From a virus: a stretch of DNA of 36,106 nucleotides. Where the stretch lies: IMG/VR virus record IMGVR_UViG_3300028844_003566, positions 1 through 36,106 of that record; one strand, written 5' to 3'. The position numbers were made by a program, and so were the translations under genes. The notes under the pieces were generated by a model, which was not told the DNA's origin, made no database searches, and worked only from the letters and a program-made list of their open reading frames with translations. This document shows positions 2,150 through 35,290 of the stretch, one piece after another; the first letter of the stretch is position 1; each line of letters opens with the position of its first letter.

Positions 2150-2194
2150 TTTCATTTCTTTTTTGTTGTGCCTTCAATTCGGGTTAAATTGGCT
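2150..2194. repeat. Direct repeat copy 2 (45 bp)
   Basis: Identical to 79-123. It forms the 3' end of the nuclease candidate gene, encoding the tail NLTRIEGTTKKK and its stop. Together with copy 3 at 2746-2774 it brackets that gene. Confidence 0.9.
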
Positions 2195-2748
2195 ATCAAT
2201 TCTCGCAAGTGCTCCGTTGGTCGAGCAGGATCAATCTTAGTACAGAGTTGCTTAACTGTCGCCCAGCCAATCTTGGGGTCGTTTAATCCTGCTCGCTTCC
2301 GCAGAACATTGTCGAGACGCTCAATCACTGTCGGATCAATCTGCCCCTCGCAAAGTGATTGAACCTGTTCCCAGTGACCCAAGCCGGCATAAGTTTTAGT
2401 GCCCCACAAGAGCTTATCTTTTTGCTTTTCTAACCATGGCTCAAGATCGCTTCCACGAGCAAAGTAATGCTCGCCCGTGAACTCAAACCCTTCTTCAGTC
2501 TTTTGGTATTGAGAGAACACCCAATGAACCTTTCTATACTCATCGAGCTTTGGTAGTGTCAGGTTCCTCGCTGTTGATACCTGCTTCTTTACTACATCAG
2601 AAGTCTTCAGTTCAATCTTATGCTCAGTACCATCCACGATTAGTGTAGCGTCTGGAATGTATTTGTTTGACCTTCCTTGTAGCGGTGTTAGATCGAATAG
2701 TTTAATCTGTGCATTTTCCCTTGCGTCGTCTTGTGTTGTCCTAATCAT
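2152..2748 (-). CDS. Putative PD-(D/E)XK restriction-type endonuclease (198 aa)
   Basis: The core signature is at residues 32-50: PDATLIVDG, a short strand, then IELKTSD. This matches the PD...(D/E)XK arrangement of restriction-type nucleases, with candidate catalytic residues D33, E47 and K49. Length suits a small type II-like enzyme. The C-terminal half is helical with basic patches. The last residues are shared with the protein encoded at 81-530. The gene is bracketed by copies of a direct repeat (2746-2774 and 2150-2194), as would be left by insertion or duplication of a nuclease cassette. Methyltransferase genes lie upstream at 3363-4901. Substrate and specificity cannot be read from the sequence. 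Confidence 0.65.
   Translation of the reverse strand: MIRTTQDDARENAQIKLFDLTPLQGRSNKYIPDATLIVDGTEHKIELKTSDVVKKQVSTARNLTLPKLDEYRKVHWVFSQYQKTEEGFEFTGEHYFARGSDLEPWLEKQKDKLLWGTKTYAGLGHWEQVQSLCEGQIDPTVIERLDNVLRKRAGLNDPKIGWATVKQLCTKIDPARPTEHLRELIANLTRIEGTTKKK
2158..2164 (-). other. Candidate -1 frameshift heptamer A-AAA-AAG (copy 2)
   Basis: Same context as copy 1: zero-frame AAA AAG AAA TGA at the end of the nuclease gene. A -1 shift here would add only a short tail (the next frame reads MKTTQT and stops), so this copy may be a passive by-product of the repeat. Confidence 0.2.
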
Positions 2749-3271: not shown

Positions 3272-3373
3272 TTATATTCCAAAAAGTTTCATTAGGATTG
3301 AGCCGATGGCTAGGACTACAGCAATTGCAGCAGCAATCACTATCCAATCAGGATCATCATCATTATACCACAT
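3272..3373 (-). CDS. Tiny predicted membrane protein (33 aa)
   Basis: An acidic N-terminus (MWYNDDDPDW) is followed by one strongly hydrophobic helix (IVIAAAIAVVLAIGSIL) and MKLFGI. The ATG overlaps the last 11 bases of the NPPF methyltransferase gene. Composition is like phage small membrane proteins, but function is unknown. Confidence 0.55.
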   Translation of the reverse strand: MWYNDDDPDWIVIAAAIAVVLAIGSILMKLFGI

Positions 3374-3923
3374 TAAGAGCTACCTTTGTAGTCTTGCGAG
3401 GGACGTTCAGTTCCTTCATAATGATTTGCTTGGGTAGGAAGTTCCAGCAATAATAACTGCTGCTAAACGTAATCTTATTATTATCTCTGCCGTCAGGCGA
3501 AACAAACTTCATACGCTTGTCGAACATCAAAAGCTGTAGATCTCTGTCCTTGAACAACTGTTTTGGAGCAGAGTCATTCAACCAAGTGTTGGTCATAATC
3601 AAAGCGAATGGCTTGTTGAATGACAGAGCCCGCTCGAAGAACTTCCGCTTGTTGGTGAAGGGCGGATTAGAAACAATCACATCCCACTCCTCAGGCTCGT
3701 ACTCAAAGAAGTCCTTACCCTCATCAATATGAGAAGCCACTACAGTATTCTGCTTAGAGATCTGCTTTACAAACTCACTGGTCTGGTCATCGAATGGACA
3801 CCAGACAATTGCACCCTCTGGGATGTATTCAAGGATGGGCTCAACTCCATAGTCAGGAGTATAGCACTCATCGTTGTTACCCTTCGAGTACAGTAGCTTT
3901 TTACTATCAATATCTTTATTCAT
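3363..3923 (-). CDS. Putative DNA N6-adenine methyltransferase, NPPF type (186 aa)
   Basis: Motif IV of amino-methyltransferases is clear (DVIVSNPPFTNK, about residues 82-93), as is an upstream YTP followed by an IVWCPFDDQ segment in the place of the AdoMet-binding motif. This pattern is seen in small phage methyltransferase-like proteins, some annotated only as N6 DNA methylase. The usual DxFxGxG motif I is missing, so activity is uncertain. It lies downstream of the helicase-methyltransferase and nuclease genes and could protect phage DNA against the neighbouring nucleases (inference). The leader contains AAGGGGA and an extended -10 element at 3938-3946. Confidence 0.7.
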   Translation of the reverse strand: MNKDIDSKKLLYSKGNNDECYTPDYGVEPILEYIPEGAIVWCPFDDQTSEFVKQISKQNTVVASHIDEGKDFFEYEPEEWDVIVSNPPFTNKRKFFERALSFNKPFALIMTNTWLNDSAPKQLFKDRDLQLLMFDKRMKFVSPDGRDNNKITFSSSYYCWNFLPKQIIMKELNVPRKTTKVALNVV

Positions 3924-3937
3924 GTGTCCCCTTGATT

Positions 3938-3946
3938 ATTATATCA
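3938..3946 (-). promoter_or_regulatory. Extended -10 promoter candidate upstream of the NPPF methyltransferase
   Basis: TGATATAAT on the minus strand, 15 bases before the start codon region, fits the extended -10 form TGnTATAAT. No good -35 box is present. The site falls in the 27-base gap between two genes. Confidence 0.4.
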
Positions 3947-3950
3947 CAGG

Positions 3951-4451
3951 CTAGATAACCTGTTCACCGTATTCTTGGATCTCTTTCCAAGTTACAGTTG
4001 CAGCCAAACGTGGGTCCTTCTGTTGACTCACGGTATCAAACTTCTTTGCAAGCTTCGGTAATAAGATGTCTACAACCTTTTTACCAGACAGTTTCCAGCT
4101 TTCAGTAAGCTTTCCGTCCTCGAAACGGTTGTAGTAGTGCTCTGGGTATTTACCGAGCTTTTCTGTAACAAGATATTTCTCTTGTTCCCGCCAGTCTTTT
4201 TGGACTGAAATGCCAGTATAAGATCCTTGGCATTTCTTGCCTGTCGTCGATTTGTACTCGACGGGCTGACCTTGTTCGTTGATGCCATCAGCACCAGCGT
4301 ACATAGTTGGACCAGGCATTTGATGGTTTAAAGAACAAGTTGCATAGATCTCTTTAGCTCTTGCATAAGAGAATGGATCACCCCAGTCCTTCTCCTGGCA
4401 GAGATCCCACATTTCTTTGTACAACTCTTGGAACTTTTGCTCTGGTGTCAT
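3951..4451 (-). CDS. Putative PD-(D/E)XK restriction endonuclease (166 aa)
   Basis: The signature GADGI, an eight-residue turn, then VEYKSTTGKK near residues 52-70 fits the PD-(D/E)XK nuclease core with D, E and K as candidate catalytic residues. The following KCQGSYTGISVQ segment is Gly-rich, as in type II enzymes. The ATG at 4451 is preceded by a perfect AAGGAGG at suitable distance. The in-frame GTG two codons earlier overlaps that site and is rejected. The gene lies directly downstream of the methyltransferase-half gene, which supports a restriction-modification-like role. Specificity is unknown. Confidence 0.65.
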   Translation of the reverse strand: MTPEQKFQELYKEMWDLCQEKDWGDPFSYARAKEIYATCSLNHQMPGPTMYAGADGINEQGQPVEYKSTTGKKCQGSYTGISVQKDWREQEKYLVTEKLGKYPEHYYNRFEDGKLTESWKLSGKKVVDILLPKLAKKFDTVSQQKDPRLAATVTWKEIQEYGEQVI

Positions 4452-4487
4452 ATGCACCTCCTTCGTGATAATAGTGTACCACGGGTT

Positions 4488-4901
4488 CTATTCTTGTCCA
4501 GTAAAAATATCTTCTAAGTTTTGTTCTAGAGTATTTGCACATTTAATATTTGATTTTAACGCTTTAGCATGAGGGCGAAAATCTTCAACATTAATTTGTT
4601 TTTTGTTTCCCGTAACTTCCCTTAGAAGTCTTCGCCTACATGTTTGGATATTATCTTCCATAATATCTACGCCATAAGTTGTCTGAAGCGCCTGGAGCGG
4701 GGTTGAGCCGTTCTGAATCTTCCTCTCCAAGACTCTAACCAAGAAGTTTCCATCGCCGCAAGCAGGGTCAATGAATGTTTTCTCTGGATCAGTGAAGACC
4801 TCTTGAGGTAGTTTATCTAGCATTTCGTCTACAAGCCATTGTGGTGTAAAGACTTCTCCGAGGGCATCCGAACGTTTTTTGGATTTTATCAAGCTGCTCA
4901 T
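4488..4901 (-). CDS. Stand-alone N-terminal half of an N6-adenine methyltransferase (137 aa)
   Basis: The sequence contains GEVFTPQWLVDEMLDKLP, motif I DPACGDGNF and a YGVDIMEDNI acidic motif II. This is the classical AdoMet-binding half of gamma-type N6-adenine methyltransferases such as Eco57I or type I HsdM. The protein ends just where the catalytic NPPY motif should follow, so it lacks motif IV and the target-recognition region. The start ATG overlaps the stop of the 1113-aa gene (ATGA), implying coupled synthesis. The segment TP..L.DEMLDKLPQE..D...TF.DPA is shared with that larger protein, pointing to duplication. It may supply the intact motif I in trans (inference). Confidence 0.75.
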   Translation of the reverse strand: MSSLIKSKKRSDALGEVFTPQWLVDEMLDKLPQEVFTDPEKTFIDPACGDGNFLVRVLERKIQNGSTPLQALQTTYGVDIMEDNIQTCRRRLLREVTGNKKQINVEDFRPHAKALKSNIKCANTLEQNLEDIFTGQE

Positions 4902-7900
4902 CTCCAGAACCCTTCCCTGAAGTGCGTGAACATTCTCCAGTCTGTTTGAAAAGTTGACCACTTTGTAGCCTTGATGATTTCCTGAAAGCCTTCGCTCTTA
5001 ACAAACTCCACCAACTTGTCACCGTCCTCACGGGAGTCAATCTCGATGCCAAATGCTAATTCAGAAGTCGCATAATTCCCATCGAAGTCGTTAATCGGCT
5101 GATGCTGCTTTTCGTTTAACGATAAGATGACTTTGGGCACGCCGAAGTGACCTTTTTCGTCGGTGTTTGAATAAAGAAAGACATTTCCGTCTTTTCTCAT
5201 TCCGTAGACAACAGGGTGAATGAACGCACCCTCCTGCTTCCTAGAAATATTCGGTTTATCATTGCCATATTTGCTACGACTGTAAACCACTTTGGCAGTT
5301 GGTTCGCCTTCTTTCGCCAACAGTTCCTCAATTTCTCCGAACATATAATTTGGTAGCCAACCTTTGTCGTAAAGAGGCATGGTGAGCTTATTCCCAAGCT
5401 CGTCCTCAACAAGAGTCCCTACTCCTGGCGATGGTAGACCTTTTTCCACAACAATGCAATCAAATCTGGTGCTGGCTCCAAATACTTCGTTACCCCTCTT
5501 CTTTGAATTTATGTTGAGAAATCTTAAAGTGTTCTCTTTTGTAATCAAGTTCATGAGTTCTTTGACATCGCCCTTTTCAGCAGGTTTTCTCCAAGGCGGA
5601 GGATTTATAGAACAAACATATCCGTTGTCTCTGACCCACTTTTGGATAGCCGAAATAAGGAATTTGTCCCAAAGAGTTCTACCTCCATGACCCCCCTTTC
5701 GACCTTTCTCGTGAACAGGCTTGTTATAAGGCGCATTCATCACTACCACGTCAAATTTCATTTTAATCTCCTCTTCTAAAAGATTATTATAACAAATATT
5801 TGGATTAATGTTAGGTTCTTTTAGGTTATATTCTAGTTCCGCAAGGGCTCTTACGAACAGTCTTGGAACCTCGTTTGTGTCGTAGATAAAGACTTGGTTT
5901 TCTATAATGTGTTTTAGTCGCTCTTCTGAATCTTCAATGACCTCCGACAAGCCTTCCATTAGACGGTCGATAATCAAGAAATAGAAAGAGCCATTCGCAA
6001 AAGCTGGGTCGCAGAAGGTCTTAGTCTTGTCGGACCAAATCTCTTGCGGCAACTTGTCCAGCATTTCATCTGCTAAGAACTTCGGTGTTCCAGGTGAAGC
6101 TTCTTTTGTGTTGCAATAGAGGTTTATGACTTCCCAAATTGCAGCACTTCCCTGACCGATTCCGAGCAACTTGTTGCTGGTGTGCTGGATGCAATCTTTC
6201 TGCCAGTCTCTGTCAATGATGTTGACATCCAAGAAGTGTTTATATTCTTCTGTCGTAACACCAGTGATGTCTTGAAAAATAGAAGAGTCGCTGGCGAGCA
6301 GACTATCCAGGTCAACTGCTCCGAGAACAGTGATTGCAATTGGCAATCTTTTAAGAACAGCCTGAAGTTTTTGTCGTGTTTTCTTAAACTCGTCCTTGTC
6401 GCTCTTCGATGTCAATGAACCGACAATCAGCTTCCGCAGCTTTCCTTTTTCTAAATCAGGATTGTCAGCAATGATTCTTTCAATCTTTTTCTTGCCCGAA
6501 GCAGAGATGCTAGATAGTGCCGCAAGTGCCTTAGCGTCGTAGCAATCCTTGATGCACCATTCAGAAGCAAACCGAGTTGACATATCCGAAATACTGGTGT
6601 TGTAAAAGTCGATAACCTCAGACGGCTTGACTTGAACGAACTTAACTCCAGCCTGAACTAGCACTGGTGCGACCTCAAAGAACTCACCTAGGACAGACTC
6701 CATGTCCTGTCCTGCTTCCTTATCCATCATCGATGTAACATAAACCAACTCCAAAGTTCGATGAGGGTCGAAGTCGAAGACGTAGAAGTCCTCTTTATCC
6801 CAGTACTCTGATTTATGAGGCGTTGAGGCTCTAAAGTTCATCTGATTGTAAGACTCGGGCGACTTGCCTCCATCGAATAAGAACACCGCTCCGAGTTCTG
6901 GAATGGTCACTCCAGTCTCAAACCGCCCGCAAGTGATTGTTACGGTCTTATTGTTTGCTGCAATCTTATTCTTTACTTCTCGAACATTGGTCACTGCGTC
7001 ACCACCCTGACCTGCTGCCAGGATGACTTCGTAATCATCAAGAACTCGGTTGAGCATGGTATGAAGTGCTCGGGCTGAATCGACAGAGTTTGGAACACGA
7101 ACAAGAACGTGGTCTAAGTTCCGCTTGTTCACCCCTTTCATTCTCAAAGGTGACTCAAGCTTCACAGACTTGTCTATATGACCTGCGGGGTCGAACACTC
7201 GCATCATCAAGTCTTCAACATAGGATTCATTCTCGAATTCGCCGTCTGCTGCTGCGAAAAGCTTTGCAATATGAAAGCCGTCTTCTTCGGTGTAGCCCCC
7301 AGCCCGCTGGACTTTTGCCACCTCCTGTGCGACGTCTAGAGAATAGATGTTCATTCTTGGCCCAGGACTGGAACCAAGCTGAGAATCCTTGTAAGTGTAA
7401 AAGTAGGAATTCGCTTGATCAAATAGTCCTGCTCTCCAACTCTTGTAAGGTGTCCCAGAGATGTGAATCTGTCGGGCTATCTCAAAGTGAGATAAAATTT
7501 CATCAGAGATGTTGGTCTTGGAGCCGTAGTGTTCCTCGTCCACCATAACTAAATCAACATCTAAGTCTAAAATCCAAGTTTTGTCAACGGAAGACTCAGC
7601 TTCTAGATACTGAAACGAAGAGAAGAACACGTTCTTTTGCGTGAGGTCAATCTCTTCTCTTGACATGTTCCTTAGATCAATGAAGTTGTAACCCTCAAAG
7701 TCAACGTGTTGCTCCAAGTCTTCTCGCCAACTGGTGCAAACTTCTGGCTTCGCAGTGAGGATGAGTGCATTGCTGTACCCAAGAGTCTTCATTGTCTGAT
7801 AAGCAGTGAATGTTTTTCCAAAGCGCATTACACAAGCGAAGAGGAATCGGTCATAGCCTGCCTCGAAAGAAGCTATGCACTTATCATGGCACTCTTGCTG

Positions 7901-8239
7901 CTCTTTGCGCATTGCAAAAGAATTAGGGCGAATAGAATTGTGAGTAATCTTATGGTAAGCCTTTTTGACATCCTGTGCGCCGCCAGGAATTTCAAACCAC
8001 TCTCGTTCATTTCTTACCTTCTCAAACCCAAGCTCTTGCAAAGATTTATGAAGTTCTTTGTCACTGACCTCTGGTGAGACCCACCAATCGACCAGATCCA
8101 GTGGCTCTGGATTTCCTGTTTTATCTTGCTGCTTTATTCTTTGCTCAACTGTTTCTTGGGTTGTTTCACCAATTTTATACCAGTTTTTTGTCTTATATGT
8201 TTCGGTCGTATAAACATAAATCTTACGGGTCTTGCTCAT
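4898..8239 (-). CDS. Fusion of GIY-YIG/T5orf172-like domain, SF2 helicase and N6-adenine methyltransferase-like domain (1113 aa)
   Basis: Residues 1-100 resemble the T5orf172/GIY-YIG nuclease group (IYVYTTE, WYKIGETT, VEQRIKQQD, EREWFEI). R34 and E80 or E84 are candidate catalytic residues. Residues 105-500 form an SF2 helicase: P-loop VMRFGKT at 137-143, DEEH at 234-237, SGTPYK at 261-266, and a C-terminal lobe with GRFETGVTIP near 438-447. Residues 715-1090 resemble a gamma N6-adenine methyltransferase, but motif I reads DPAFANGSF instead of DPACGSGNF, and motif IV reads NAPY instead of NPPY. The order nuclease-translocase-methyltransferase recalls type ISP restriction enzymes (LlaGI family), but with a GIY-YIG-like rather than Mrr-like nuclease. 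The intact motif I is in the coupled gene downstream. It has its own promoter candidate and GGAGG site. Confidence 0.75.
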   Translation of the reverse strand: MSKTRKIYVYTTETYKTKNWYKIGETTQETVEQRIKQQDKTGNPEPLDLVDWWVSPEVSDKELHKSLQELGFEKVRNEREWFEIPGGAQDVKKAYHKITHNSIRPNSFAMRKEQQECHDKCIASFEAGYDRFLFACVMRFGKTFTAYQTMKTLGYSNALILTAKPEVCTSWREDLEQHVDFEGYNFIDLRNMSREEIDLTQKNVFFSSFQYLEAESSVDKTWILDLDVDLVMVDEEHYGSKTNISDEILSHFEIARQIHISGTPYKSWRAGLFDQANSYFYTYKDSQLGSSPGPRMNIYSLDVAQEVAKVQRAGGYTEEDGFHIAKLFAAADGEFENESYVEDLMMRVFDPAGHIDKSVKLESPLRMKGVNKRNLDHVLVRVPNSVDSARALHTMLNRVLDDYEVILAAGQGGDAVTNVREVKNKIAANNKTVTITCGRFETGVTIPELGAVFLFDGGKSPESYNQMNFRASTPHKSEYWDKEDFYVFDFDPHRTLELVYVTSMMDKEAGQDMESVLGEFFEVAPVLVQAGVKFVQVKPSEVIDFYNTSISDMSTRFASEWCIKDCYDAKALAALSSISASGKKKIERIIADNPDLEKGKLRKLIVGSLTSKSDKDEFKKTRQKLQAVLKRLPIAITVLGAVDLDSLLASDSSIFQDITGVTTEEYKHFLDVNIIDRDWQKDCIQHTSNKLLGIGQGSAAIWEVINLYCNTKEASPGTPKFLADEMLDKLPQEIWSDKTKTFCDPAFANGSFYFLIIDRLMEGLSEVIEDSEERLKHIIENQVFIYDTNEVPRLFVRALAELEYNLKEPNINPNICYNNLLEEEIKMKFDVVVMNAPYNKPVHEKGRKGGHGGRTLWDKFLISAIQKWVRDNGYVCSINPPPWRKPAEKGDVKELMNLITKENTLRFLNINSKKRGNEVFGASTRFDCIVVEKGLPSPGVGTLVEDELGNKLTMPLYDKGWLPNYMFGEIEELLAKEGEPTAKVVYSRSKYGNDKPNISRKQEGAFIHPVVYGMRKDGNVFLYSNTDEKGHFGVPKVILSLNEKQHQPINDFDGNYATSELAFGIEIDSREDGDKLVEFVKSEGFQEIIKATKWSTFQTDWRMFTHFREGFWR

Positions 8240-11798: not shown

Positions 11799-12530
11799 TT
11801 ACTTACATTCACTTGTTAGTAATTGCGCAATTTTATCAATCGAAGATCTGTACTGATGGTAGGGTCGCAATGAATGACAATCAACAAAGCTCTCCAACTC
11901 CTGAAGAGATCCAACAGAGACCCAATTTGAGCGGTCAAGTCTTTCCGACGAGTCTGGAGCCAGCCGCTGGAAAAAATGCAAGTCGGTACCTTGGTATTCC
12001 TCTATACGCTTAGTGCAATATGATTCTTCACGTCCCCATCTCTCAAATCCCATGTGTCGAAAACAAGCCCCGTCAGAGTTATAAACTTCTCTAAGAGACT
12101 TTTCATATGAGTCGCCAAGCTGTAAAACTTTCTTAAACATTGATCCTTTAGCCACATGATAGCATACCGGGATAGGACGATGTTTACCAAACAAGTGTAC
12201 GTACTTGTCGTCATCGACAGGTACCAACTGTTCAACAAATACAGACTTAGAAATGGGCAGCATCTCGATATCACTCACGATATGAACCTCATCTGGGCTT
12301 AGTGTTGTAAACCAAAACCTAGCCCACTGCGCCTGGAAATAGGTAGGAATATCTGAAACAGGGGTAATCTTAATAACCTTTCCAAATGTATCGTCCATCT
12401 CTTTTTCGCCGCAATATATTAACACAGGATCGATGTTGAACCTCTTCTTCCAGATCATAGAACTTATTGCCCAAAAATCGGAGTAAAGCGGATTATCATC
12501 AACCGCCATGATTGCCTTACTAATCTTCAT
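11799..12530 (-). CDS. Putative glycosyltransferase-like protein (243 aa)
   Basis: The product begins MKISKAIMAVDDNPLYSDFW and contains VHIVSDIEMLPI, a DxE-type site in the position of a GT-A DxD motif. Its size and layout match the next gene, but similarity is low. The ATG at 12530 overlaps the last bases of the SDR epimerase gene, so the two are coupled. The sugar donor and acceptor are unknown. No signal peptide or membrane helix is seen, so it should act in the cytoplasm or on a lipid-linked intermediate. Confidence 0.55.
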   Translation of the reverse strand: MKISKAIMAVDDNPLYSDFWAISSMIWKKRFNIDPVLIYCGEKEMDDTFGKVIKITPVSDIPTYFQAQWARFWFTTLSPDEVHIVSDIEMLPISKSVFVEQLVPVDDDKYVHLFGKHRPIPVCYHVAKGSMFKKVLQLGDSYEKSLREVYNSDGACFRHMGFERWGREESYCTKRIEEYQGTDLHFFQRLAPDSSERLDRSNWVSVGSLQELESFVDCHSLRPYHQYRSSIDKIAQLLTSECK

Positions 12531-13419
12531 TAGCAAGCCAGCCCTGGATAGAGATCGTGGGCTTCCAGTCCATCATGCTATTGATCTTTCGGGCATCAGC
12601 TAGGGTCACACGAGATTCTCCTAGGCGCTCAGGAATATGGACTACTTCATCGCCAATCAAACTTGCTAGCTCCAAGACAGATATGTTTGTCCCTGTACCA
12701 ACATTAAAAGTCTCCCCAAAAATCTCACTATTGACCGAGGTCATAGCGAGAAAATTAGCATTAGCCACATCTTTTACGTAGGTAAAGTCTCTTTTCTGCC
12801 CACCATCACCCACAATTGTCATTGGCTCACCAGCGGCGACCTGTCGTTGAAAAATACCAACAACTGGAGCATATTGCCCCTTAAGAGGTTGTCGCTCACC
12901 GTAAACATTAAAGTAGCGGAGGATAACCGTGTTCAAGCCGAACAGATTAGTATACATTTTGCACAACTCTTCGCCCGCAACCTTGGTTACAGAGTAAGGG
13001 TTAAGGCAGTCATTAGGCATGTCCTCTCGCAGCGGAGGAGTATTCTTCCGACCATATGCTGATGAGGTGCTAGAATAGATAACCCTATCGATGCCGTGAG
13101 TCCTGGCTGCCTGGAGAACATTGCACGTACCTAGAACATTAACAGATGCAGCACGGGAGGGGTTTTTAATCGCCGGCTGAATCCTAGCTTCAGCCGCAAA
13201 GTGGAACACGCCGGTCACCCCCTCAAACAAAGGAGCCAAAGATTCATAGTCAGTAATATCGACTTTGTAATTCTCCGCACGCTTATCCCAGAAGAACTCT
13301 TCGTTGCTGTCTGCTGACTCATCATCTACAACAACAACTTGATGCCCCTCATCAAGAAGTCTCTCAACTAGGTGACTACCAATAAAACCAGCCCCGCCTG
13401 TAACTAAGTACCTTGTCAT
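12520..13419 (-). CDS. NAD-dependent sugar-nucleotide epimerase/dehydratase, extended SDR (299 aa)
   Basis: The NAD-binding motif TGGAGFIG is at residues 7-14, with VVVVDD as the acidic strand end. The catalytic S-Y-K triad is complete: YSSTSSAYG near 115-122 and Y142-x3-K146 in NPYSVTK. The downstream segments RYFNVYGERQ and RDFTYVKDVA are typical of UDP-glucose/UDP-glucuronate 4-epimerases and related dehydratases. Length is normal to slightly short (300-330 expected). It would make an activated sugar for the two glycosyltransferase-like proteins encoded right after it. The exact sugar cannot be told from sequence. Confidence 0.88.
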   Translation of the reverse strand: MTRYLVTGGAGFIGSHLVERLLDEGHQVVVVDDESADSNEEFFWDKRAENYKVDITDYESLAPLFEGVTGVFHFAAEARIQPAIKNPSRAASVNVLGTCNVLQAARTHGIDRVIYSSTSSAYGRKNTPPLREDMPNDCLNPYSVTKVAGEELCKMYTNLFGLNTVILRYFNVYGERQPLKGQYAPVVGIFQRQVAAGEPMTIVGDGGQKRDFTYVKDVANANFLAMTSVNSEIFGETFNVGTGTNISVLELASLIGDEVVHIPERLGESRVTLADARKINSMMDWKPTISIQGWLANED

Positions 13420-26041: not shown

Positions 26042-28071
<2,030 letters not shown>

Positions 28072-28072
28072 T

Positions 28073-28993
28073 TCATTCTCCTCTTTCTTTAGGATAGGGC
28101 AGGTTTGCCCGCTTAGGATTATATTGTACAAACAAATTGCGTAAGTGTTTAGTTTCTTTTTTTGATCTGCCCAAAATATAGCAGTACTTGTGTTTTGAGG
28201 GCACGATTCGGCACTCGCAACTCTCTCGGTACAGCTTCTCTTGTTCCTTGACCTTCTCTTTCATTCCATAAGGCATCGTGTCCCATTTAGGAGTGTACTT
28301 ACCTAGGTATTTTTTCCATTCCTCGTAGGGAATGCCTACTGCTTCAGCATAGCGTCGGTATTTAGATTTCTTGCGGAATTCTCGGTCGCTAAACCATCCC
28401 TTCTCAAGAGCGTTGGGATCCCGATACATCTTCACCGTGCCTGATGTTTGACCGAGATAGGTCCAGTTCAGTGCTTGGTAGATTGTTCCCAGTTCTTTGG
28501 CGAGTGGATCACTGTACGCTTCGAACATCCTGAAGTCAGTATTCTGGACCATCCACTTGCAGGCTCGGGATACAATCCACGACCCCAGGTTCTTTGGAGC
28601 CCAGCTAATTGATGCTCCTCTTGATACTAATTTTATGATGTCCCTGTTTTCTTTGCCGAGGGCAAAACTGAATGTGTTGGGTGTCGCCATCACAACCACG
28701 CCAGCCAGGACACCACTGTTCTTAAGTCGAGCAGTGAAGCGGTGGGTTGGTCGGTTGGGTAGGATCCCCAGGAACTCATGGCGTTCAATGAACGCTTTGA
28801 TTTCAGCACACTGTGCCTTGGCGGTCTTATCAACATAGGCAAAGTCGAAGTCGTCAGTCCGTAGGTCTGCTGCCCACTGCTCGTCTTTCCCTATTTCTCG
28901 TAAGTCTTTTCTGCTGTTCCGAAGTCTTACTTCGTATTGCCAGCAGTGATTTTCTTTTAGATCTTTGAATCGTTCAAATGGATCGGCTCTCAC
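28073..28993 (-). CDS. Mom-like GNAT-fold putative DNA-modification protein (306 aa)
   Basis: The central part (about 65-195) carries the pattern of phage Mom-type proteins: F.ARLKNSGVLAGVVVMATPN, SRGASISWAPKNLGSWIV, then FEAYSDPLAKELGTIYQA and NWTYLG. Phage Mu Mom is a GNAT-fold enzyme that modifies adenine (methylcarbamoyl-adenine) and shields phage DNA from restriction. The long basic C-terminus (FRKKSKYRRYAEAVGIP...) is not part of Mom and may bind nucleic acid. It overlaps the 449-aa gene by four bases. Acetyl transfer to another target is an alternative. Confidence 0.6.
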   Translation of the reverse strand: MRADPFERFKDLKENHCWQYEVRLRNSRKDLREIGKDEQWAADLRTDDFDFAYVDKTAKAQCAEIKAFIERHEFLGILPNRPTHRFTARLKNSGVLAGVVVMATPNTFSFALGKENRDIIKLVSRGASISWAPKNLGSWIVSRACKWMVQNTDFRMFEAYSDPLAKELGTIYQALNWTYLGQTSGTVKMYRDPNALEKGWFSDREFRKKSKYRRYAEAVGIPYEEWKKYLGKYTPKWDTMPYGMKEKVKEQEKLYRESCECRIVPSKHKYCYILGRSKKETKHLRNLFVQYNPKRANLPYPKERGE

Positions 28994-34234: not shown

Positions 34235-35290
34235 TTATTTCTTCCGTCCATTCTGGGAAGTGAGGATGTGGGTGCCGCTCTCGATAGTGCCGGCTGAAGT
34301 CTGTCGTGCCCACTCTGCTTTGTGTGTGAGTTCGGTGATTGTTCGGGCACCGGTGTAAGATAGCCCGCTACGAATACCGCCTTCAAGATCGGCAAGGATA
34401 TCCGCAACACTGCCCTTATAAGGAATGTATGAAGCAACTCCTTCTGGGGTTGATGACTTGTTCCGCCAATCCATCTGGGCATCTTTGGACGCCATCCCTC
34501 GGTACTCTTTCATTCGGCTGCCGTCGGGCAGTGAGATAACTTGACCTGGGCTTTCCTCGGTTCCAGCCAACAATGAGCCGCACATTACGAAGTCTGCACC
34601 GGCTGCTAAAGCTTTAACAATATCTCCCGAGGTTTTGATACCGCCGTCGGCGATGATTTTGACGTCCCTGTCCGTCCTCGCACAGTCGAAGATCGTTTGG
34701 AGACCGGGTAAACCGTGCCCTGTGACAATCCGAGTAGAACAAATGGAGCCGCCACCAATGTTGCACCGTACAGCATTAGCTCCCCAATCAGCAACATCGT
34801 TAACACCCTCCAGAGTACAGACGTTTCCAGCAATAATATAAATATCATCGCCGAATGCTTTCCGCAATTCCTGAAGAGCGTTTTTCATCATAATATGATG
34901 TCCGTGTGCTACATCTACGCAAAGTACGTTTGCCCCAAGGGCAACGACAGTTGTGGCTCGCTCTAAATAATCTCCAGTCACACCGATAGCAGCGGCGACC
35001 ATAGGATCAACAGTGATGTTGCTGATAGCAGCGGCTGCAAGTGATACTAGGCGTCCTTGTTCGACGATGCTATTATACCTATGGATGACTGCAAGTCCTC
35101 CGGCTTTCGCCATCGCCACAGCCATATCAACTTCAGACACGGTGTCCATCGGTGACGCCATAATGGGTAATTGTAACGCCGATGTCACATTAAGAGCGTT
35201 TGAAATATCTACTTCGCTCCGGCTCGTGATATCACTGTACTGAGGTACAAGCAACATATCATCATAGGTGACCGCTTCTTTAAACTTCAT
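34235..35290 (-). CDS. IMP dehydrogenase / GMP reductase family enzyme (351 aa)
   Basis: The TIM-barrel signature is complete: MASPMDTVSE, GGGSICSTRIVTG with catalytic Cys184, IIADGGIKTSGDI and EYRGMASKDA. The tail STPEGVASYIPYKG is IMPDH-like, but there are no CBS domains, and the length (351) is that of GMP reductase. IMPDH makes XMP for GMP synthesis, and GMP reductase turns GMP back to IMP. Which reaction is used is not decided by the sequence. The IMPDH flap RY pair is not evident. It probably tunes the purine pool during infection. Confidence 0.85.
   Translation of the reverse strand: MKFKEAVTYDDMLLVPQYSDITSRSEVDISNALNVTSALQLPIMASPMDTVSEVDMAVAMAKAGGLAVIHRYNSIVEQGRLVSLAAAAISNITVDPMVAAAIGVTGDYLERATTVVALGANVLCVDVAHGHHIMMKNALQELRKAFGDDIYIIAGNVCTLEGVNDVADWGANAVRCNIGGGSICSTRIVTGHGLPGLQTIFDCARTDRDVKIIADGGIKTSGDIVKALAAGADFVMCGSLLAGTEESPGQVISLPDGSRMKEYRGMASKDAQMDWRNKSSTPEGVASYIPYKGSVADILADLEGGIRSGLSYTGARTITELTHKAEWARQTSAGTIESGTHILTSQNGRKK

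What the first reader, a model, noticed from the sequence alone, without database searches (positions are those of the whole stretch)
3363..8239. Restriction-modification-like island with a GIY-YIG/T5orf172 - SF2 helicase - N6-methyltransferase fusion
Seen: one 1113-aa protein joins a T5orf172/GIY-YIG-like N-terminus, a complete SF2 helicase (RFGKT, DEEH, SGTP) and a methyltransferase-like part. It is followed by a half-methyltransferase, a PD-(D/E)XK protein and an NPPF methyltransferase. Known: type ISP enzymes such as LlaGI put Mrr-like nuclease, translocase and methyltransferase in one chain. Inference: this may be a phage-borne relative with a different nuclease and split methylation function, used against host or rival phage DNA. 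I know of no described system with this exact make-up.
Basis: partly seen in the sequence, partly recalled or inferred. Interest (0 to 1): 0.8.

Follow-up and report, generated by a model that had tools for sequence, protein, structure and literature searches.

The report
Phage restriction enzyme with split methyltransferase
A virus of bacteria carries a DNA-cutting motor protein whose DNA-marking enzyme seems to be divided over two separate proteins; the same divided design turns up in hundreds of bacterial genomes and many phages, and I found no published description of it.

Summary
Window 4898-8239(-) encodes one 1113-aa chain: GIY-YIG/MUG113 nuclease, complete SF2 translocase, and an Eco57I-type methyltransferase (MTase) part. 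Its stop overlaps (ATGA) the start of a "half-MTase" (4488-4901). Then come a PvuII-fold PD-(D/E)XK protein (3951-4457) and an NPPF MTase (3363-3923).

The half-MTase is not a remnant. It belongs to a large, conserved family ("HALF") carrying only the SAM-binding motifs (motif I Gly 100/99%, motif II acid 100% in 116 members). It sits beside NPPY partners whose own SAM site is mostly lost (Lys for Gly in 91%) or absent; in seven phage loci the partner begins at motif IV. In other phages the two halves are one circularly permuted chain.

In bacteria the set is a three-gene operon, HALF - NPPY partner - GIY-YIG/translocase (49 of 56 testable loci, many phyla). Plasmids and some phages fuse the last two, as the window does. 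REase and NPPF MTase are a separate marine-phage pair.

Best reading: an ATP-driven restriction-modification system working like Type ISP, with GIY-YIG in place of Mrr and a two-polypeptide adenine MTase. PADLOC holds the fused form as putative Type IIG. No activity is shown.

The parts
4898..8239 (-). 1113-aa fusion: GIY-YIG/MUG113 nuclease - SF2 translocase - coupler - Eco57I-type MTase part
   Evidence: AlphaFold2; best PDB match LlaBIII
7940..8239 (-). GIY-YIG (MUG113/T5orf172-like) domain, residues 1-100; Y8, Y10, K22, G24, R34, E80 conserved
   Evidence: Pfam MUG113 3.6e-7; columns over 133 homologues; pLDDT 75-90
6560..7942 (-). SF2 helicase/translocase, residues 100-560: MRFGKT, DEEH, SGTP, TCGRFxTGVT, QMNFR
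   Evidence: ResIII 1.1e-14; motif conservation
5795..6115 (-). cis copy of the SAM-binding half (residues ~709-815), degenerate motif I
   Evidence: HALF profile match 709-840; 48% identity to the separate half over 50 residues
5984..6010 (-). degenerate motif I DPAFANGSF
4901..5767 (-). catalytic half and probable target-recognition region (residues ~825-1113)
   Evidence: Eco57I/phrog_3689 matches; 32% identity over 425 aa with L246
5726..5737 (-). motif IV, NAPY instead of NPPY
   Evidence: also NAPY in L246
4488..4901 (-). HALF: stand-alone SAM-binding half-MTase, 137 aa, ATGA overlap with the fusion stop
4743..4769 (-). intact motif I DPACGDGNF of HALF
3951..4457 (-). PvuII-fold PD-(D/E)XK restriction-endonuclease-like protein (phrog_35715); likely start ATG 4451 after AAGGAGGTG
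4251..4289 (-). predicted catalytic D57...E67-x-K69 of the PvuII-like protein
   Evidence: invariant in 32 homologues
3363..3923 (-). NPPF MTase of the phrog_799 type; partner of the PvuII-like gene in marine phages
2152..2748 (-). possible second PvuII-like endonuclease, weak match; not shown to belong to the system
   Evidence: Pfam Endonuc-PvuII E 0.0034, below cut-off

Best explanation
The fusion and the HALF protein form one ATP-driven restriction-modification enzyme. HALF binds S-adenosylmethionine and docks onto the catalytic/recognition half at the fusion's C-terminus, making an adenine-N6 methyltransferase from two polypeptides, which marks the phage's own target sites. When a target is unmethylated, the SF2 domain translocates along DNA, as in Type ISP enzymes, and the N-terminal GIY-YIG domain cuts. 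The phage would use this against host DNA or competing phages. The adjacent PvuII-fold endonuclease and NPPF MTase are a second, independent R-M-like pair. Shown: domain make-up, conservation of the nuclease and motor active-site residues, the near-constant pairing and division of MTase motifs, and the natural permuted fusions. Inferred: docking of HALF, methylation, translocation, cleavage, biological use.
For: Domains and motifs; LlaBIII best PDB match. HALF keeps motifs I, II and III in 116 members while the NPPY partner keeps NPPY (97-100% per position) but has Lys for the motif-I Gly (91%) and has lost the motif-II acid. Seven viral loci have partners that begin at motif IV (NPPY at residue 9-11, at most 16 codons to the upstream stop) with HALF next to them. 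Single-chain permuted forms, NPPF half then HALF: L243, L258, L259, L262 and Aeromonas phage 65.2. Three-gene operon complete in 49 of 56 bacterial loci with enough sequence. T4-like phages pair HALF with a different GIY-YIG (LEM-3 type) fused to an NPPF/NPPY half. ATGA overlap in the window.
Against: The window's own motif IV is NAPY and its cis motif I is degenerate, so methylation by this copy is uncertain. Some aquatic-phage partners (L019, L020, L024, L026, L022) keep an intact SAM site in cis, so HALF is not always the only SAM-binding half. In 20 of 72 viral HALF-only loci my strict search found no partner within 1.5 kb. The MTase part folded poorly (pLDDT < 50 for 872-1113). The locus ranking used a query that includes the MTase part, which may favour complete operons. 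No biochemical data.
Confidence: 0.66

Rival explanations
1. Ordinary Type IIG/Type ISP relative: the fusion is a complete enzyme on its own and HALF is a dispensable leftover of gene duplication.
For: PADLOC files the fused form under REase_MTase_IIG; LlaBIII is the best fold match; some phage partners have an intact SAM site.
Against: HALF motifs are near-invariant across phyla, HALF is nearly always present, partners starting at motif IV cannot bind SAM alone, permuted fusions exist.
Confidence: 0.13
2. HALF is a regulatory or assembly subunit (pseudo-heterodimer, SAM sensor) rather than the SAM-donating half of the active site.
For: Partners often keep a whole, altered SAM-like half with a conserved Lys, so HALF need not complete the fold; some orphan HALFs lack a partner nearby.
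Against: Partners without any SAM half and single-chain permuted versions make complementation the simpler account.
Confidence: 0.15
3. In the window the MTase is dead and the protein is only a nuclease-translocase that destroys DNA, the phage being protected otherwise (for instance by its Mom-like modification or by the NPPF MTase).
For: NAPY and DPAFANGSF; a Mom-like gene at 28073-28993.
Against: NAPY also occurs in the distant relative L246 with 32% identity over 425 aa, and the window's HALF is intact, which argues against decay.
Confidence: 0.12

Closest known systems
Type ISP enzymes LlaGI / LlaBIII
   Same: Single chain with N-terminal nuclease, SF2 helicase-like ATPase, coupler and N6-MTase; LlaBIII 4xqk aligns over about 1000 columns. 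Make-up of Type ISP taken from PMC4666363.
   Different: Nuclease is GIY-YIG, not Mrr; the MTase needs (by inference) a separate SAM-binding polypeptide; cis motif I is degenerate.
PADLOC PDLC03626 REase_MTase_IIG (1359-aa model)
   Same: Same helicase and NPPY half: L072 proteins match 148-801 and 1009-1359 of the model; probably built from the fused plasmid form.
   Different: Filed as Type IIG; the separate HALF gene that sits next to the fused form in L234-L236 is not part of it.
Split cytosine-C5 MTases such as M.AquI (own knowledge)
   Same: One MTase fold divided over two polypeptides.
   Different: Those are cytosine-C5 enzymes; here the motifs are those of adenine-N6 MTases, in permuted order in the fused forms.
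Circularly permuted M.EcoKI-like DAMs of jumbo phages (PMC7824862)
   Same: Permuted versions are noted there for some jumbo phages (example APU01582.1).
   Different: The passages read do not describe a two-gene split or a GIY-YIG/translocase partner.
PvuII restriction endonuclease
   Same: Fold and D-x9-E-x-K spacing of the 3951-4457 protein.
   Different: About 16% identity; specificity unknown; partner MTase is of another family.

Membership tests
Type ISP | N-terminal Mrr-like PD-(D/E)XK nuclease in the same chain | tested here: not met
   N-terminus is MUG113/GIY-YIG
Type ISP | SF2 helicase-like translocase in the same chain | tested here: met
Type ISP | complete N6-MTase in the same chain | tested here: not met
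   motif I DPAFANGSF, motif IV NAPY; intact SAM half is a separate gene
Type ISP | C-terminal target-recognition domain | tested here: inconclusive
   region 870-1113 present, but low-confidence model
Type ISP | ATP-driven translocation before cleavage | not testable with these tools
   needs biochemistry
Type IIG | nuclease and MTase in one chain without an ATPase motor | tested here: not met
   complete SF2 motor
Split MTase | SAM-binding and catalytic motifs on different polypeptides | tested here: met
Split MTase | activity only when both polypeptides are present | not testable with these tools
   needs co-expression
GIY-YIG superfamily | conserved Tyr, Gly, Arg and Glu of the active site | tested here: met
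   Y8, G24, R34, E80 100% in 131-133 proteins
PvuII-fold endonucleases (3951-4457) | PvuII fold with D...ExK | tested here: met
PvuII-fold endonucleases (3951-4457) | sequence-specific cleavage | not testable with these tools
   needs assay

The most novel reading that the evidence does not exclude
A so far undescribed class of restriction-modification systems, widespread in bacteria, plasmids and phages, in which an obligate two-polypeptide adenine MTase (a stand-alone SAM-binding half that can serve different catalytic/recognition halves) is coupled to a GIY-YIG/SF2 motor nuclease.
Probability: 0.5. Interest if true: 0.75.

Novelty: new variant of a known kind. Interest (0 to 1): 0.62.

Why it matters
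If true, hundreds of genomes carry an R-M system that annotation now splits into a 'GIY-YIG nuclease' or 'DEAD/DEAH helicase', an 'Eco57I methylase' and an unnamed 'N-6 DNA methylase' or 'hypothetical protein', so that methylomes and defence catalogues miss it. Splitting the adenine MTase into a shared SAM-binding half and a replaceable catalytic/recognition half would be a ready-made way to change specificity; L255 has two catalytic halves beside one HALF. Cultured phages (Klebsiella PKO111, Shigella PSD9, Vibrio PVA23) and gut bacteria carry versions, so it can be tested now.

Tried and rejected
Half-MTase as a sequencing frameshift or pseudogene of the fusion: rejected, it overlaps the fusion stop as ATGA and is conserved as a separate gene across phyla. 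Single-query viral scans with the fusion (2 hits) and with the PvuII-like protein (no relatives) failed; alignment queries worked. Phmmer of the PvuII-like protein against the PDB found nothing credible; only the fold search did. AlphaFold2 of the whole fusion did not give a usable MTase part. A helicase tree could not say how often the fusion arose: the window sits on a long branch with weak support; fused forms are scattered, so several origins are likely but not shown. The neighbour scan for defence genes (AriA, AbiLi, SoFic, GmrSD, other MTases, resolvases among housekeeping genes) had no control set and is only suggestive. Literature searches found no description of the system; only open-licence papers are held.
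Full report
What is there. The window is a 36,106-base virus record, with the main genes on the - strand. The fusion 4898-8239 reads MUG113/GIY-YIG (residues 21-94, 3.6e-7), ResIII helicase (108-265, 1.1e-14) and Eco57I-type MTase (810-907, 2.3e-5, slightly under the Pfam cut-off). The next gene, 4488-4901, is a 137-aa half-MTase with motif I DPACGDGNF and nothing after motif III; its ATG overlaps the fusion's stop as ATGA. Next are a 168-aa protein with no Pfam hit and an NPPF MTase.

The PD-(D/E)XK claim. An AlphaFold2 model from 32 sequences (the window's and 31 viral relatives) has mean pLDDT 92.5 and its twelve best PDB matches are all PvuII endonuclease (E from 3.7e-6). D57, E67 and K69 are invariant, the D-x9-E-x-K spacing of PvuII (own knowledge: D58, E68, K70). 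It is a PvuII-fold endonuclease-like protein.

Two units, not one island. Relatives of the PvuII-like protein were found in 393 candidate stretches of viral contigs. In 53 of 76 testable loci the NPPF MTase starts within -60 to +400 nt of its stop, in 7 more it overlaps further, and in 6 it lies about 1 kb on. The same pair is in Prochlorococcus phage P-TIM68. Only L193 puts the PvuII-like gene beside a split-MTase unit.

The fusion's family. In bacteria the genes are HALF (200-280 aa), an NPPY partner (about 500-550 aa) and GIY-YIG/translocase (about 800-1060 aa), in that order; 49 of 56 loci with at least 3 kb upstream hold all three, four lack a detected HALF, three hold the motor gene alone. 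Hosts range over Actinomycetota, Bacillota, Bacteroidota, Pseudomonadota, Chloroflexota and a Heimdallarchaeota bin. Aquatic phages have translocase - NPPY partner - HALF (L020, L024, L026). Fused forms are in the window, L022, L023, L066 and L068, and on plasmids of Enterococcus, Lactiplantibacillus and Lysinibacillus, where a 1326-1445-aa chain follows a 248-306-aa gene matching HALF.

Active sites. Over 133 nuclease-translocases Y8, G24, R34 and E80 of the GIY-YIG domain are 100% conserved and K22 99%; the translocase has K142, D234-E235, H237, G262-T263, Q466 and R470 at 100%.

Division of labour in the MTase. In 116 HALF proteins the motif-I glycines are 100% and 99%, the motif-II acid (D/E) 100% and the motif-III D/N 100%. 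In their NPPY partners N, P, P and Y are 97-100%, but the first motif-I glycine is Lys in 91% and the motif-II acid is Ala or Gly in 84%. The Lys is conserved, so this looks like a changed function, not random decay. Aquatic-phage partners L019, L020, L024, L026 and L022 keep an intact cis motif I, which limits the claim. The window's cis motif I is DPAFANGSF, and its motif IV is NAPY.

Direct evidence for a split enzyme. A HALF-centred scan gave 72 of 80 loci with HALF as a separate short gene. In L240, L241, L242, L248, L252, L255 and L293 the neighbouring partner begins at motif IV (MKFDVVIGNPPY and the like), with 0-16 codons to the upstream stop, so it has no SAM-binding half. L243, L258, L259 and L262 hold single chains with the NPPF half first and motif I last, as does Aeromonas phage 65.2 (L009): natural fusions of the two halves, in circularly permuted order. 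In L255 two NPPF halves stand next to one HALF.

Different nucleases with the same split MTase. T4-like phages (PKO111, PVA23, PSD9) have an NPPF/NPPY half fused to a LEM-3-type GIY-YIG domain (2.7e-15, 6e-16, 3.8e-9), without a translocase in that chain, followed by HALF. L246 shares the window's NAPY MTase part (32% over 425 aa, E 3e-49) but has a motor that BLASTP does not align.

How it probably works. The best structural match of the fusion is LlaBIII (4xqk, E 2e-16), with LlaGI, ZorD and SauUSI further down; TM-scores are low, at least partly because the MTase part is poorly modelled (pLDDT < 50 for 872-1113). I infer a Type ISP-like cycle: recognition by the MTase/TRD part, methylation with SAM held by HALF, translocation from unmethylated sites, cleavage by GIY-YIG. 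Membership in Type ISP fails on the nuclease and on the self-contained MTase; 'works like Type ISP' stands as inference.

Novelty. The fused form is catalogued by PADLOC as REase_MTase_IIG and by PGAP as an Eco57I methylase. No held paper that my searches reached describes the split MTase or the three-gene system; the closest is a remark on permuted M.EcoKI-like DAMs in jumbo phages (PMC7824862). Subscription papers and REBASE could not be searched, so priority is not proven.

Noticed in passing
window 26042-27628 (-): GroEL-like chaperonin (phrog_5725, 4e-142), with a dehydrogenase (34235-35290) and nucleotide-sugar epimerase-like gene (12520-13419): the record looks like a fragment of a larger phage.
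   Followed up: no
window 28073-28993 (-): Mom-like DNA modification protein (phrog_1384, 3.5e-18): the phage may carry another DNA modification besides the R-M-like genes.
   Followed up: no
window 2152-2748 (-): Weak PvuII match (E 0.0034): possibly a second PvuII-like endonuclease near the first.
   Followed up: no
L255 282-2562: Two different NPPF halves (315 and 291 aa) beside one HALF: one SAM-binding subunit may serve two specificities.
   Followed up: partly
L275-L287: A set of 198-aa HALF proteins, several copies in isolate 2823261200, with no partner found within 1.5 kb; L013 also has HALF without a partner in 12 kb.
   Followed up: no
L234 830-8793: On an Enterococcus faecium plasmid the HALF plus fusion pair lies directly downstream of the resistance gene optrA.
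   Followed up: no
L005 2818-14383: Gut phage NatCom_35866: the three-gene set is flanked by a large AAA-type ATPase gene upstream and genes resembling McrB and McrC downstream (by eye), like a defence island.
   Followed up: no
L012 5923-6414: Prevotella phage Lak-B4: the HALF frame was read with TAG as Gln (one such codon).
   Followed up: no
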